64,000 bases of DNA, taken from Alteromonas sp. IB21. Lineage in GTDB: Bacteria > Pseudomonadota > Gammaproteobacteria > Enterobacterales > Alteromonadaceae. Numbering within the stretch: position 1 is the first letter of the stretch; each line of letters opens with the position of its first letter. A program made the translations under genes and the position numbers. Where the stretch lies: contig NZ_JAEFCD010000003.1 of assembly GCF_016405965.1 (NCBI RefSeq), forward strand, positions 141,157 through 205,156, read 5' to 3'. The notes beneath the pieces are model-generated. The model was not told where the DNA came from. It made no database searches and saw only the letters and a program-made list of their open reading frames with translations. This document shows, one piece after another, positions 59,654-64,000 of the stretch.

Positions 59654-60514
59654 CTACTGGCGTGCTTGGCGATGGTTGGGATAAGGCGCTTCATAATTTG
59701 AACGGAATGGGTTTATGTCCAATCCACCTCTTCGTGTGTATCTCGCACAAACAGTTAACTTGTCAGGGCTACATTTACGCATAATGTCGCTGTAAATGCG
59801 TTCAACACACTGCTCGTGAAACTCATTGTGCTGTCTAAAGCTAATTAAATATTGTAAGAGCCCTTCGTGGGCTATCGCCTTTCCTTCATACTTTATTTGA
59901 ATACTAGCCCAATCTGGTTGACTTGTTATTAAGCAATTAGACTTAAGTAAATGAGAAACGAGTGTTTCGTTAACGTCTCCGCGATTTTTATCGACAGTCA
60001 GGTATTGTGTATTAGGTGAATATTCATCGGCAGTTATGTCTAGCTCATCCAACAAGATGCCATCGAACTCTTTAAACTGCAGGTCAGAAAATTGCTGTGG
60101 CAAAATCAAGTTTACGTCCACTGGTTGTCCCGCGCATGCAGATAAATCAGTCTGCAATACGTTTTTTACGTCATTGGCAGAGGTAAACTTAGTTTGATTA
60201 AAACTGTTCAAGTAGAGTTTGAACGACTTTGACTCTATTAGGTTCTCTGACGTTATTGGAACACGGCACTCTAAAATAGCGACACAGGGTTTTCCCTTTG
60301 GATTTAGCCATGAAAGTTCGAAGCCAGTCCATGTATCTATACCTGTAAATGGCAGTTGGTTACCATGCAGATTTAGCGTGTCACGGCTAAGGCTGCGCGG
60401 CACACCCTGCAATAGACTTGGATTGTATTCAAACTCGTAGTCAACCTGTTTACCCAAAGAAAGGTTATCAGGTGCAGAGATAATAATTTTTTTAGGTGGG
60501 TTGTCAGTCGACAT
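59654..60514 (-). CDS. queF: NADPH-dependent 7-cyano-7-deazaguanine reductase QueF
   Basis: A 286-residue two-domain (long) QueF reducing preQ0 to preQ1 in queuosine biosynthesis. LGKQVDYEFEYNPSLLQGVPRSLSRDTL, GFELSWLNPKGKPCVAILECRVP, LIESKSFKLYLNSFNQTKF, LKSNCLITSQPDWASIQIKYEGKAI (catalytic Cys in SNCLITSQPDW) and FRQHNEFHEQCVERIYSDIM match E. coli QueF (282 aa). Divergent from syd, an arrangement also seen in E. coli. Confidence 0.96.
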   Translation of the reverse strand: MSTDNPPKKIIISAPDNLSLGKQVDYEFEYNPSLLQGVPRSLSRDTLNLHGNQLPFTGIDTWTGFELSWLNPKGKPCVAILECRVPITSENLIESKSFKLYLNSFNQTKFTSANDVKNVLQTDLSACAGQPVDVNLILPQQFSDLQFKEFDGILLDELDITADEYSPNTQYLTVDKNRGDVNETLVSHLLKSNCLITSQPDWASIQIKYEGKAIAHEGLLQYLISFRQHNEFHEQCVERIYSDIMRKCSPDKLTVCARYTRRGGLDINPFRSNYEAPYPNHRQARQ

Positions 60515-60658
60515 AAGAACCTTTTATATATCTACCAGAAGGCGAGGGAAATTTGCGCTAAATCGATCTGGGTTCGAGTAGCGAAGCACCGTGGCCTTTG
60601 TATTGACTTAACTGTTTAGTTGTATAGTGTACCCCAAAAATACGCAGGTAACGTCACA

Positions 60659-61204
60659 ATGGCTCTAACAATTTCAGAACAATTAAATAAATTTGTATCA
60701 TCTTATGTCGAAGAAGCGAAAAGCGAAGGGCTTAAGATTGTTTTTGATAGCGAATGGCCATCCCCTTGCTATCAAGAAGTAGTATCGGATGGTGATTTTG
60801 TAAGATGGGAGCCAACAGTACAAACACCGAAGCTCTCTTTCGATAACGTGGAAGAAGCGATGTCGTTGAAGCTGCATCCAGATTATTGTAGTTACTTTAC
60901 TGCTTATTACAGCGACAACCTAAAAGCTAAAGCCCCCCAGGGTAACTGCGAACTGCTCCAGGTATTCAACCAAGCAGATTTTGAGCGACTTCAGCAAAAC
61001 TTAATTGGTCACTTATTAATGAAGCAGCGGCTAAAGCAAGCTCCTACCTTATTCTTTGGGCTTACTGATGAAGAGGATTTTATTCTAACGATCGTAAATG
61101 ACAGTGGTGAAGTTGCCCTTGAGCAGGTAGGTAGAGAACCAACAAAAATTCTTGCACCTTCACTCGCTGAGTTTATAGCGCAGCTTACGCCCATTACAAC
61201 GTAA
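60659..61204 (+). CDS. syd: SecY-interacting protein Syd
   Basis: A 181-residue protein, the same length as E. coli Syd, which binds SecY at the cytoplasmic side of the inner membrane. I chose the ATG at 60659 (MALTISEQLNKFVSSYVEEAKSEG); an ATG at 60620 would add 13 unconserved residues. Family blocks: FDSEWPSPCYQ, FVRWEPTVQ, SLKLHPDYCSYFTAYYSDNLKA, GNCELLQVFNQADFERLQQNLIGHLLMKQRLKQAPTLFFG. It is a genomic landmark because csrB lies next to syd in E. coli. Confidence 0.93.
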   Translation: MALTISEQLNKFVSSYVEEAKSEGLKIVFDSEWPSPCYQEVVSDGDFVRWEPTVQTPKLSFDNVEEAMSLKLHPDYCSYFTAYYSDNLKAKAPQGNCELLQVFNQADFERLQQNLIGHLLMKQRLKQAPTLFFGLTDEEDFILTIVNDSGEVALEQVGREPTKILAPSLAEFIAQLTPITT

Positions 61205-61221: not shown

Positions 61222-61536
61222 TTATCTTTTTTCGTTAACCAGCTGCTGCAAAACCCGCTTAAGCTCATCTACTTCTTTTTCTAAATTTTCAATTCGCTCG
61301 TAAAGGTGGTCACTCCTACTGGGCGGTAATTCAGGATGTGGTGGTGCCGATGCGCTTCCTTCATGTCTATCCAAGGCGGGTTTGTTAGCGTTAAAGCGTT
61401 TAATGGCTTCAATCGCTTCGGTTACTGACACTTTAAACGGCGCCTTTGCCCGCAAAATTCCTACCGTGGGCGTTTTGCCTTCATTATGCATTTGAAGACA
61501 CAGAGCGTGTAGGTGTTGTAAGTTCGAATTATTCAT
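61222..61536 (-). CDS. Small coiled-coil protein, possible DNA-binding
   Basis: A 104-residue soluble protein. Residues 1-50 (LHALCLQMHNEGKTPTVGILRAKAPFKVSVTEAIEAIKRFNAN) look like a helical domain with a KfrA- or replication-protein-like flavour. A proline-rich linker (SAPPHPELPPSRS) follows, then a coiled coil (HLYERIENLEKEVDELKRVLQQLVNEK). It is convergent with syd (17-bp gap). I do not recognise a named family and give no function. Confidence 0.7.
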   Translation of the reverse strand: MNNSNLQHLHALCLQMHNEGKTPTVGILRAKAPFKVSVTEAIEAIKRFNANKPALDRHEGSASAPPHPELPPSRSDHLYERIENLEKEVDELKRVLQQLVNEKR

Positions 61537-61850: not shown

Positions 61851-62216
61851 ATGAAAACTATACTTCTTTCTGCTGCTTTGGCCTCTTCACTCCTTTTGTC
61901 GGGCTGTGTTGTATCTGTCGGCGGGGGCTCAGACAGTCATTATGGCGCTGACTGGGAAGATAGAGAGTTTAACAATCGCAAGCACATCGCAAACCTCGAA
62001 AAGGGTACAAGCTATGAAAGTGTACTCAGAAAAATGGGTGTAGCAGACTTCAACGAACTGTTTGAAAAGCAAGATGGCACTTACCGCGTGCTTTATTATC
62101 GAACGCAAAAAACCATGGGTGATGGTATTACGACGAAGGATGAATGCACGCCGCTAGTATTCAGAGATGGAAACCTCGTTGGATGGGGGGATAGTGCTTA
62201 CGGTTTAATGCATTAA
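61851..62216 (+). CDS. DUF3192 family lipoprotein
   Basis: A 121-residue lipoprotein with an AALASSLLLSGC lipobox. The mature protein (DWEDREFNNRKHIANLEKGTSYESVLRKMGVADFNELFEKQDGTYRVLYYRTQKTMGDGITTKDECTPLVFRDGNLVGWGDSAYGLM) is a DUF3192/SmpA-like fold. Paralogue of the protein at 56.05 kb. A good ribosome site (AAGGAA) precedes the ATG. Envelope role inferred; function unknown. The region 61537-61850 has no convincing gene. Confidence 0.85.
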   Translation: MKTILLSAALASSLLLSGCVVSVGGGSDSHYGADWEDREFNNRKHIANLEKGTSYESVLRKMGVADFNELFEKQDGTYRVLYYRTQKTMGDGITTKDECTPLVFRDGNLVGWGDSAYGLMH

Positions 62217-62411: not shown

Positions 62412-63059
62412 ATGAGTAACGAAGCGATGGATGGTGCGTTAGCCCCTCTTCAAGAAACTGTCAAAGCAATATATCTAACCGTAGACGATCTCAAAGTTGC
62501 CGCCTCTATTCTCTACAATGCTTATGTAGACGACCCTCTATTTATAGATATTTTTCAAGCTGAGAAAGAAGGTTACGAGAACCGTCTTCGTTCCGCCATA
62601 CGCGAGGAATTGAACGCATTTTGGGTAGCAGAACAACCTATGATCGGTCTTTTTGATGAAGACAGGTTAATTGCAGTTGCTTGCTTGACAGCGCCCGACG
62701 CAGCATTCGGCTCTGGTCGATATTGGCACTGGAGACTAAGAATGTTGCTAACGGCGGGGTTATTTGGCACCAAACAGATGCTGGAGAAAGAAGAAAAAGT
62801 CAGGTCACTGGTGCCCGCTGATAATTTTCATATGCTCAGCTTTATTGCGGTTCATCCCGATTATCAACACCATGGTCTTGGCCATATATTACTTGGTGCT
62901 ATTGACAGCGTAGTCGAGGAAGATGAAAAGAGCGAAGGGGTATCAGTATTTGTTACGATTGATAAACACCGTTCATTTTTTAACGACGATAACTATCAAG
63001 TTGTCGGGCAGTTAAGCCTTTCTCACGTTAACGGCGATGTCATGTTTCGTCGCACGTGA
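62412..63059 (+). CDS. GNAT-family N-acetyltransferase
   Basis: A 215-residue acetyltransferase. The acetyl-CoA motif A is FHMLSFIAVHPDYQHHGLGHILLGAIDSVVEED (V-x-x-x-x-Q-x-x-G-x-G), followed by VSVFVTIDKHRSFFNDDNYQVVGQL as the C-terminal strand and loop. AYVDDPLFIDIF at the N-terminus is typical of a GNAT subgroup with unknown substrates. Ribosome site GAGGAG lies 9 nt before the ATG. Last protein gene before the CsrB-like RNA; no operon link. Confidence 0.85.
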   Translation: MSNEAMDGALAPLQETVKAIYLTVDDLKVAASILYNAYVDDPLFIDIFQAEKEGYENRLRSAIREELNAFWVAEQPMIGLFDEDRLIAVACLTAPDAAFGSGRYWHWRLRMLLTAGLFGTKQMLEKEEKVRSLVPADNFHMLSFIAVHPDYQHHGLGHILLGAIDSVVEEDEKSEGVSVFVTIDKHRSFFNDDNYQVVGQLSLSHVNGDVMFRRT

Positions 63060-63132
63060 TTCTTTTCTATCTTATGTTGTTCGTTTTTTAAACCATTCCT
63101 GCCATCATAATTTTCGTAACGTTAAATTTATG

Positions 63133-63166
63133 ACAGAGTTTGTAGGATATCTCTTACAAACTCTGT
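63133..63166. promoter_or_regulatory. GacA/UvrY-type binding palindrome upstream of the CsrB-like RNA
   Basis: A 34-bp palindrome with 12-bp perfect outer arms, ACAGAGTTTGTA and its complement. Its core TGTAGGATATCTCTTACA (63141-63158) fits the GacA/UvrY consensus TGTAAG-N6-CTTACA with one mismatch (TGTAGG). Its centre is about 180 bp upstream of the proposed RNA start, a spacing similar to that of known csrB-type promoters. It strongly suggests control by a BarA/GacS-UvrY/GacA two-component system. Confidence 0.85.
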
Positions 63167-63318
63167 GCGTGATCTTACCTAAATTCGTCAATAAAAATTT
63201 AGACAAAAGTATAAAAGTATTGATTCTATTGGCTTTTTTAAAGACTAGTCAAAAGTAGTAAGAAAAACTGTTTAAAATTACTGTAATTCAACATGGCGGT
63301 AATATTTGAAAGGAATAC

Positions 63319-63324
63319 TATATA
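63319..63324 (+). promoter_or_regulatory. Probable -10 of the CsrB-like RNA gene
   Basis: TATATA within TACTATATAC, with no good -35 at the right distance, as expected for an activator-dependent promoter. The transcript would start near 63330-63332. Placement is approximate. Confidence 0.5.
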
Positions 63325-63330
63325 CATGTC

Positions 63331-63941
63331 ACAAGGAAACACGACGAGTCACGGATTGAGTAAGGAAAGCGATAGGACAACTTAAGGATAAGATTCTCAT
63401 AGGGCAGTGAGAGGATGGAAAAGGAAGGCAGAGAGGAAACTGCAATGATAGGGACATTAAAGGAATATTAAGGATTAAGGATATTTAGTGTGATAGGGCA
63501 TCACGACAGGATGTAGCAAAGGAATAGGGATAAATGCTAGCAAGGAGCTAGGCGGCATGGAGCCAACGGCAAGGAAAAGCTCCAGTAGGATTCTGAGTTT
63601 GCATGGACGAGCAAACCAAGGATGAATAAGGGACATGCTAAAGTATTAGCAAAGCTGTAGCAGGATGTACAGCATTTGATGGACGAAGGAAAGGAATGTC
63701 AGCGGAGCCTGATGAGGACAGCCTCAGGATGAGGAACACTGTATAAAGGATGTGCAGTAAAATAGGAGCAAGGGAAAGGGACCTACGCATGGATGGGTAG
63801 CTCGCACAGGAAGGCGCGAGAGTAGATGGAAAGGGGCGTATACGGATTTTAATCGGGAAGATTTTAGTCGCAAAGGATCGCGGAGAAGGATACTCAAAAT
63901 TCCAGGAAAAAGGGGAGCCGTCAGGTTCCCCTTTTTTTTTT
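63331..63941 (+). ncRNA. csrB: Very large CsrB-type CsrA/RsmA-sequestering RNA
   Basis: A purine-rich, non-coding stretch of about 610 nt with about 44 GGA triplets (hand count, 63331-63907), many as AGGA, CAGGATG or GGGA. Many sit in loops of short hairpins, for example GCAG/CTGC at 63428-63443, CTAGC/GCTAG with an AAGGA loop (63537-63551), GGC/GCC with ATGGA (63554-63564), TTTGC/GCAAA (63598-63615), GCTGTA/TACAGC (63654-63673), CCTC/GAGG (63722-63734) and CTCGC/GCGAG (63801-63820). It ends in a strong intrinsic terminator and has a GacA-type box about 180 bp upstream. The syd-queF-ppnN neighbourhood matches the E. coli csrB locus. E. coli CsrB has about 22 sites in 369 nt, so this RNA could bind roughly twice as much CsrA. 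Confidence 0.93.
63912..63941 (+). terminator. Intrinsic terminator of the CsrB-like RNA
   Basis: Stem GGGGAGCC / GGTTCCCC (one G-U pair) with a GTCA loop and a run of ten T (63932-63941), preceded by an A-run. It defines the 3' end of the RNA. Confidence 0.95.
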
Positions 63942-63986
63942 GATGTGTCCCGTCCTGAAATACGTTGACATAAAGAGGATTTCTTT

Positions 63987-64000
63987 ATGACAACTTCAAG
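63987..64000 (+). CDS. Possible start of a gene cut by the window edge
   Basis: AGAGGA is followed by ATG ACA ACT TCA AG at the very end, reading MTTSR or MTTSK-like. The preceding bases (from about 63942, TGATGTGTCCCGTCC) and an MTTSR-type start resemble the left end and first ORF of IS3-family insertion sequences, but 14 bases are too few to decide. Confidence 0.3.

What the first reader, a model, noticed from the sequence alone, without database searches (positions are those of the whole stretch)
63331..63941. Giant CsrB-type RNA with about 44 GGA motifs
The sequence shows dense GGA triplets on one strand only (TCC is rare), repeated short hairpins with GGA or GGGA loops, no open frame and a strong terminator. 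Established knowledge: CsrB/RsmY/RsmZ RNAs use GGA in loops to titrate CsrA/RsmA, and E. coli csrB lies beside syd. At about 610 nt and about 44 sites it would be about twice the size and capacity of E. coli CsrB. It could titrate perhaps 20 CsrA dimers per molecule (inference). I cannot tell whether this particular RNA is already described in the genus.
Basis: partly seen in the sequence, partly recalled or inferred. Interest (0 to 1): 0.93.

Follow-up and report, generated by a model that had tools for sequence, protein, structure and literature searches.

The report
Oversized CsrB-type CsrA-sponge RNA gene
Near the syd gene of an Alteromonas genome lies a 614-base stretch holding 45 GGA motifs, about twice as many as E. 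coli CsrB; it is predicted to be transcribed as one long noncoding RNA that would soak up the global regulator CsrA, and RNAs that are probably its counterparts have already been reported from sister species.

Summary
Window 63331-63941 holds 45 GGA and 3 TCC; dinucleotide shuffles give 24.6 +/- 3.2 GGA, maximum 35 in 1000. It is best read as the Alteromonas orthologue of csrB. It sits in the E. coli csrB neighbourhood (queF, syd), with a conserved 5' end at 63328. A UvrY/GacA-type box lies 187 nt upstream of that end (191 in E. coli). GGA columns are more conserved than the rest. In 12 close species, 14 of 18 consensus hairpins keep GGA in the loop in at least 10. It misses Rfam's CsrB cut-off (23.8 against 71 bits). 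The genome encodes csrA and UvrY. Sister species make very abundant RNAs, AltRN1 and Aln1a-c, most likely from this locus, reported as a 424-nt RNA and as three sRNAs. So the kind, and probably the locus, are known. New are the size (614 nt and 45 GGA, against 369 nt and 22 in E. coli) and that csrB length varies about twofold across Alteromonadaceae, in two Paraglaciecola through internal tandem repeats. One-piece transcription and CsrA binding are inferred.

The parts
63328..63941 (+). Predicted CsrB-type RNA, 614 nt, 45 GGA; 5' end placed by the conserved GTCACAAGGAAACACGACGAGTCA start
   Evidence: no transcript data for this strain
63141..63158 (.). UvrY/GacA-type box TGTAGGATATCTCTTACA, 187 nt upstream of the predicted 5' end; only site with 0-1 mismatch in the genome
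   Evidence: 2-mismatch hits are at control level; at -175 to -190 in 57 of 62 delimited RNAs, window included; E. coli csrB has TGTGAGAGATCTCTTACA at -191. The name of the box is recalled
63316..63321 (+). Likely -10 element TACTAT, with no good -35, as would suit an activator-dependent promoter
   Evidence: by eye in the sequences; the promoter scan did not list it; inferred
63427..63893 (+). Array of short hairpins; 14 of the 18 consensus hairpins of the RNA carry GGA wholly in the loop in at least 10 of 12 species
   Evidence: two of the 14 loops lack GGA in the window itself (63494-63500 and 63641-63646)
63638..63942 (+). Match to Rfam RF00018 CsrB, 23.8 bits, E 2e-4, below the gathering score of 71
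63907..63941 (+). Intrinsic terminator: 13-nt arms, 4-nt loop, T run
   Evidence: conserved in the 12 species; not listed by the scan
60620..61204 (+). syd (PF07348)
59654..60514 (-). queF (PF14819, PF14489)
61851..62216 (+). DUF3192 gene (lipoprotein-like N-terminus) between syd and the RNA
   Evidence: the lipoprotein label is my reading of the N-terminus
62412..63059 (+). GNAT-domain gene, next gene upstream of the RNA

Best explanation
Window 63328-63941 is most likely the Alteromonas csrB gene: it would be switched on by phosphorylated UvrY at the box at 63141-63158, be transcribed as one RNA of about 614 nt ending at the terminator, and display its 45 GGA motifs, many predicted to lie in hairpin loops, to sequester CsrA away from its mRNA targets. 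Shown here: the GGA excess, the box and its nearly fixed distance, the terminator, the shared position with E. coli csrB, higher conservation of GGA columns, GGA-loop hairpins kept by 12 species in a consensus fold, and a genome with csrA and UvrY. Inferred: that the whole stretch is one transcript, that CsrA binds it, that UvrY drives it, and that capacity scales with GGA number (about 37 CsrA subunits by proportion to E. coli CsrB). The extra length looks like elaboration of one gene rather than added copies: I found one box site and one canonical 5' motif in this genome.
For: GGA excess. Gene order queF, syd, csrB in E. coli K-12 and queF, syd, DUF3192, GNAT, RNA here. By eye 28 of the 29 congener loci have the DUF3301-type gene after the RNA on the other strand (Pfam was run on one DUF3301 and one DUF3549 protein). 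Box: only site with 0-1 mismatch in the genome; -187 here, -191 in E. coli; at -175 to -190 in 57 of 62 delimited RNAs, window included. GGA columns are 92.8% conserved against 81.2% for other columns over 12 close species, and 99.5% against 88.8% in the 3' half. Consensus structure: 119 pairs, 99.2% of cells paired, 7 pairs with changes on both sides, a number reached in 0 of 500 shuffles. In the single-sequence fold 29 of 45 GGA are unpaired (64%) against 42% +/- 9 in 60 shuffles (maximum 62%), and the fold energy has z = -4.7. RF00018 matches below the cut-off in the window and at the RNA in 5 of 5 relatives scanned at loose settings, best 53.4 bits, E 1.4e-11. One csrA; UvrY 54% identical to E. 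coli's, next best 27%; BarA candidate 36%. Expression in sister species: AltRN1 comparable to ribosomal genes (PMC4223743, passages) and Aln1a-c the most expressed genes of their data set (PMC5864184, abstract and section 15). In 280 kb of two relatives around the expected position this RNA is the only GGA cluster at score 40 or more.
Against: Neither the window nor any of 11 relatives reaches Rfam's CsrB gathering score; the whole-genome RF00018 search listed four matches of 8.8-13.3 bits elsewhere and not this locus. The loop preference is not special to GGA: in sampled structures GGA is wholly in hairpin loops 27% of the time, GAA 33%, AAG 24%, AGG 24%, and GGA's share in the minimum-energy fold (27%) is below the shuffle maximum of 32%. 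Counted as whole triplets, GGA in the 5' part is kept in 70% of species, no better than GCA (74%, 8 sites), ACA (84%, 5 sites) or AGC (70%, 6 sites). Sister-species transcriptomics reported shorter units: 424 nt (AltRN1), and three sRNAs with three start sites in a 404-bp intergenic region (Aln1a-c), whereas the intergenic space in my likely A. macleodii genome is about 1 kb. No + strand sigma-70 promoter was listed. BarA is only the best hit among many hybrid kinases. 4 of 58 congeners gave no BLAST match, though one of them (G020) has the 5' motif.
Confidence: 0.9

Rival explanations
1. The stretch is not one giant RNA but a cluster of several shorter CsrA-binding sRNAs, each from its own start site or cut from a precursor, as reported for Aln1a-c in A. 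macleodii Te101. Titration of CsrA would be the same, but 'giant' would be wrong.
For: PMC5864184 (abstract, section 15) reports three start sites and three sRNAs in a 404-bp intergenic region; PMC4223743 (passages with Table 3) lists AltRNa1 as 424 nt.
Against: Only one UvrY-type box site is found in the genome and one terminator-like inverted repeat, at the end of the stretch. No + strand sigma-70-like promoter was listed in 63060-64000. The 5' motif and the terminator are conserved while the middle varies in length. That the two published RNAs lie at this locus is itself an inference.
Confidence: 0.2
2. The RNA is a CsrB orthologue but much of the extra length is spare: only the conserved 3' part with its well-formed loops binds CsrA strongly, so real capacity is near that of E. 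coli CsrB.
For: The 3' half is far more conserved than the 5' part (non-GGA columns 88.8% against 71.4%). 12 of 45 GGA sit wholly in hairpin loops in the fold. In the 5' part whole GGA triplets are kept no better than some other triplets.
Against: In the 5' part GGA columns are still better kept than the other columns (84.4% against 71.4%), and total GGA stays at 44-49 in 12 species although the sequence drifts.
Confidence: 0.25
3. The GGA excess is a by-product of purine-rich composition or an antisense coding region, with no CsrA link.
For: The strand is purine rich (A 216, G 194 of 611); - strand ORFs overlap; other purine triplets are in loops as often as GGA.
Against: Shuffles with the same dinucleotides reach at most 35 GGA. 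GGA columns are conserved above other G/A columns (92.8% against 82.2%). Box, terminator and hairpins are conserved. The - strand ORFs of 90 aa or more differ from locus to locus.
Confidence: 0.02

Closest known systems
E. coli CsrB (RF00018, CsrB/RsmB)
   Same: Near syd and queF; box about 190 nt upstream; similar 5' end (GTCGACAGGGA against GTCACAAGGAA); many GGA; hairpin and T run at the end
   Different: 369 nt and 22 GGA against 614 nt and 45; the Alteromonas RNA scores 23.8 bits against a cut-off of 71; two genes lie between it and syd on its strand, plus a 104-aa ORF on the other
Aln1a-c of Alteromonas macleodii Te101 (PMC5864184; abstract, section 15 and found passages seen)
   Same: Same genus, A(N)GGA motifs, very high expression; position relative to csrA consistent with this locus; the paper's 77% average identity between A. 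macleodii and A. mediterranea is near the 79% that I find between the two likely genomes
   Different: Reported as three sRNAs in a 404-bp intergenic region; here the conserved unit is one 614-nt stretch
AltRN1 (AltRNa1 in Table 3) of strains AltDE and AltDE1 (PMC4223743; found passages seen)
   Same: Highly expressed unassigned ncRNA; cited by PMC5864184 (its reference 33) as high expression of the Aln1 region; distances to RNase P and SRP RNA genes compatible with this locus within tens of kb
   Different: Listed as 424 nt with no homology; not linked to CsrA in the passages seen
Pseudoalteromonas fuliginea Csr sRNAs Pf1, Pf2, Pf3 (PMC11882849; found passages seen)
   Same: CsrB-type GGA sponges of a marine gammaproteobacterium; CsrA gel shifts for Pf2 and Pf3
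   Different: Three RNAs with 25, 21 and 9 GGA instead of one with 45

Membership tests
CsrB-type CsrA-sequestering sRNA (orthologue of csrB) | Many GGA motifs, many in hairpin loops | tested here: met
   45 GGA; 14 of 18 consensus hairpins with GGA loops in at least 10 of 12 species; but other purine triplets are in loops as often
CsrB-type CsrA-sequestering sRNA (orthologue of csrB) | Genomic position beside syd and queF | tested here: met
   two same-strand genes intervene
CsrB-type CsrA-sequestering sRNA (orthologue of csrB) | UvrY/GacA box upstream | tested here: met
   sequence only, binding untested
CsrB-type CsrA-sequestering sRNA (orthologue of csrB) | Intrinsic terminator, no coding frame | tested here: met
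   the consensus scan listed no terminator
CsrB-type CsrA-sequestering sRNA (orthologue of csrB) | CsrA and UvrY encoded in the same genome | tested here: met
   BarA only a candidate
CsrB-type CsrA-sequestering sRNA (orthologue of csrB) | Binds CsrA and antagonises it | not testable with these tools
   needs gel shift or pull-down
CsrB-type CsrA-sequestering sRNA (orthologue of csrB) | Expressed as an RNA (here: as one RNA) | not testable with these tools
   sister-species RNA-seq papers report high expression but shorter units
Rfam RF00018 as delimited by its gathering score | At least 71 bits to the covariance model | tested here: not met
   23.8 bits, E 2e-4; 0 of 11 relatives over the cut-off; 5 of 5 relatives below it, 27.3-53.4 bits. 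Hence not filed as an RF00018 member; filed as a csrB orthologue by position and anatomy

The most novel reading that the evidence does not exclude
CsrB is a length-evolving sponge: with start, UvrY box and terminator held in place, Alteromonadaceae repeatedly lengthen a single csrB by adding GGA-hairpin modules, or duplicate the whole gene as in A. lipolytica. One oversized molecule with about 45-50 GGA thereby does the titration that other marine bacteria share among several Csr sRNAs.
Probability: 0.45. Interest if true: 0.55.

Novelty: new member of a known kind. Interest (0 to 1): 0.4.

Why it matters
Csr RNAs set the switch between growth modes in many gammaproteobacteria, and in Alteromonas, marine bloom bacteria, the probable counterparts are among the most abundant transcripts reported (PMC5864184, PMC4223743). 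If this is one RNA with twice the GGA sites of E. coli CsrB, the published units (424 nt, or three sRNAs) need revising. The family would also offer a natural series of CsrB sizes, 313 to 678 nt among 55 cleanly delimited RNAs, in which to test whether sponge capacity is tuned by RNA length. It also shows that Rfam's CsrB cut-off misses the 12 csrB orthologues tested here.

Tried and rejected
RF00018 at its cut-off: no match in the window; searched whole-genome, the tool's four matches (8.8-13.3 bits) lay elsewhere. The DNA match on another contig (C25:38-91) is a shared element end with a terminator-like hairpin beside it, not a second csrB. Recent internal duplication as the origin of the window's own length: none visible. 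Placing AltRN1 exactly by distances to RNase P and SRP genes: the intervals differ by tens of kb between genomes, so this is compatible, not proof. Explaining the reported 404-bp intergenic region by spurious ORFs in the likely A. macleodii genome: no exact fit. The last part of the script failed; the identity it should have given came. The sigma-70 scan gave nothing useful. Plasmid collection: no match. Long-range pairing of the 5' and 3' parts (helices 1-2): its pairs hardly vary, so they give no covariation support. Rows: I examined 76 loci in all (73 named ones; the window and two unnamed congeners were added). Of the 76, 62 were delimited, 3 were not (L090, L103, L106), and 11 had no GGA RNA in the DNA held beside DUF3549 (L068, L069, L075, L076, L083, L086, L091, L093, L094, L095, L101), some of them cut off by contig ends. 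Of the 62, I set aside 7 for length ranges: L070 spans two tandem copies, and the 3' ends of L082, L087, L088, L096, L098 and L102 look wrongly called by my pattern. The tree leaves out the named loci L068, L075 and L076.

Full report
What is there. The stretch 63331-63941 has 45 GGA against 24.6 +/- 3.2 in 1000 dinucleotide shuffles and is the only GGA cluster of the window at score 40 or more. The RNA most likely begins at 63328: the motif GTCACAAGGAAACACGACGAGTCA starts there and, with small changes, in most delimited relatives. It ends in a hairpin with a T run to 63941. The nearest named relative is Alteromonas gracilis: the RNA is 93% identical in G012, whose contig has the length and place of the named record L036.

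Surroundings. Upstream are queF, syd, a 104-aa ORF with no Pfam match, a DUF3192 gene and a GNAT gene. In 28 of the 29 congener loci, judged by eye, a DUF3301-type gene follows on the other strand; Pfam was run on one DUF3301 and one DUF3549 protein. In the window a DNA piece starting TGTCCCGTCCTGAAA follows the terminator at 63946; it recurs next to a mreB-like gene on contig C25 (the gene name is my reading) and downstream of the RNA in A. gracilis. E. coli K-12 has queF, syd, csrB, yqcC in a row. The RNA is thus in the csrB position.

Control signals. TGTAGGATATCTCTTACA at 63141-63158 is the only site with 0-1 mismatch in the 4.54-Mb genome; at two mismatches matches are no more frequent than with the reversed pattern. 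E. coli csrB has TGTGAGAGATCTCTTACA at -191. Of 62 delimited RNAs (window included) 57 have such a box at -175 to -190; five do not under my pattern (L042, L043, L044, L092, L099). That UvrY activates csrB in E. coli is from PMC7652899 (passages). The genome has one csrA, a UvrY at 54% identity and a BarA candidate at 36%.

Selection on the motif. In an alignment of 12 close species GGA columns are 92.8% identical to the window, other columns 81.2%, other G/A columns 82.2%; GGA totals stay at 44-49. Counted as whole triplets, GGA is kept in 86% of species overall and 99% in the 3' half, the highest of the 11 triplets looked at in both; but in the 5' part it is kept in 70%, no better than GCA, ACA or AGC. 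The consensus fold has 119 pairs and 18 hairpins, 14 with GGA wholly in the loop in at least 10 of 12 species; two of these 14 lack it in the window itself. Seven pairs change on both sides, a number reached in 0 of 500 shuffles (mean 2.2), against 0-4 in structures slid by 1 to 3 columns; the structure was derived from the same alignment, which favours it in the second control. In the single-sequence fold 29 of 45 GGA are unpaired (64%) against 42% +/- 9 in 60 shuffles; 12 of 45 are wholly in hairpin loops (27%) against 14% +/- 7, maximum 32%. Other purine triplets such as GAA (33%), AAG and AGG (24% each) are in hairpin loops about as often as GGA (27%), so the loop placement alone is weak evidence.

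Against Rfam. The window scores 23.8 bits to CsrB, E 2e-4 for 1001 bases, under the cut-off of 71. Of 11 relatives none reaches the cut-off; of 5 scanned at looser settings all 5 match at the RNA, 27.3 to 53.4 bits. A whole-genome search with the same family did not list this locus. The family resemblance is present but weak, as would be expected of an RNA whose constraint is GGA sites rather than fixed sequence.

Size in the family. E. coli csrB: 369 nt, 22 GGA. In 55 cleanly delimited RNAs of Alteromonadaceae, window included, length runs from 313 to 678 nt and GGA from 19 to 50; GGA-dense segments of all 62 named loci with one hold 16 to 52 GGA. On a DUF3549 tree of 72 rows (quick method, 20 of 69 inner branches open) the split at 38 GGA needs at least 7 changes among 64 rows with counts, one of those rows being the tandem L070. 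Paraglaciecola arctica (678 nt, 50 GGA) carries a 92-nt unit repeated in tandem and Paraglaciecola sp. 20A4 a 206-nt repeat, while relatives L078, L085 and L084 are 495-502 nt; the window shows no such repeat. A. lipolytica has two complete tandem copies with a box each. The canonical 5' motif occurs in 40 of 196 family genomes, once in each, among them this genome and 7 of 7 sampled congeners; this exact pattern misses variant 5' ends such as that of A. lipolytica, so it does not exclude further Csr RNAs.

Already known? A. macleodii Te101 makes Aln1a-c, three CsrA-type sRNAs and the most expressed genes of the data set (PMC5864184: abstract, section 15 and passages seen). That paper says that an earlier study saw high expression of this region in A. 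mediterranea; its reference 33 is PMC4223743, which lists AltRN1, 424 nt, expressed like ribosomal genes (passages). In 280 kb of that genome and of the likely A. mediterranea genome it is the only GGA cluster at score 40 or more. The RNAs of the two are 79% identical; the paper gives 77% on average. I conclude that Aln1 and AltRN1 are most likely this locus. The published units are shorter than the conserved 603-635 nt of the 12 species; the 404-bp intergenic figure is unexplained. In the listings of my ten literature searches (open-licence PubMed Central only) I saw no description of a single giant CsrB in Alteromonas.

Mechanism and verdict. The best explanation is UvrY-driven synthesis of one long RNA that sequesters CsrA. 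By proportion to E. coli CsrB, which binds about 18 CsrA subunits (PMC7652899, passage), 45 GGA would hold about 37 subunits; this is extrapolation. Pseudoalteromonas fuliginea shares 25, 21 and 9 GGA among three RNAs (PMC11882849, passages), so one long RNA here might replace several. This is a new, oversized member of a known kind, probably at an already detected locus.

Noticed in passing
window 63946-64000: Right after the csrB terminator starts a piece (TGTCCCGTCCTGAAA...) that recurs beside a mreB-like gene on another contig and downstream of csrB in A. gracilis; it looks like the end of an insertion sequence and may be why the contig ends here.
   Followed up: partly
L070 7350-8600, minus strand (Alteromonas lipolytica): Two complete tandem csrB-like genes, each with its own upstream box and terminator.
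   Followed up: partly
L081 and L082 (Paraglaciecola arctica, Paraglaciecola sp. 20A4): Internal tandem repeats with periods of 92 and 206 nt inside the csrB-like RNA, which is longer than in close relatives.
   Followed up: partly
L083, L086, L094, L095, L101 (Aliiglaciecola and a relative): No GGA-dense RNA in the DNA held beside DUF3549; the gene may have moved or been lost in this clade.
   Followed up: no
window 61222-61536: A 104-aa minus-strand ORF between syd and the DUF3192 gene with no Pfam match.
   Followed up: no
L099 21-114, L100 55-162: t44 RNA (RF00127) matches above the cut-off near the ends of two relatives' loci.
   Followed up: no
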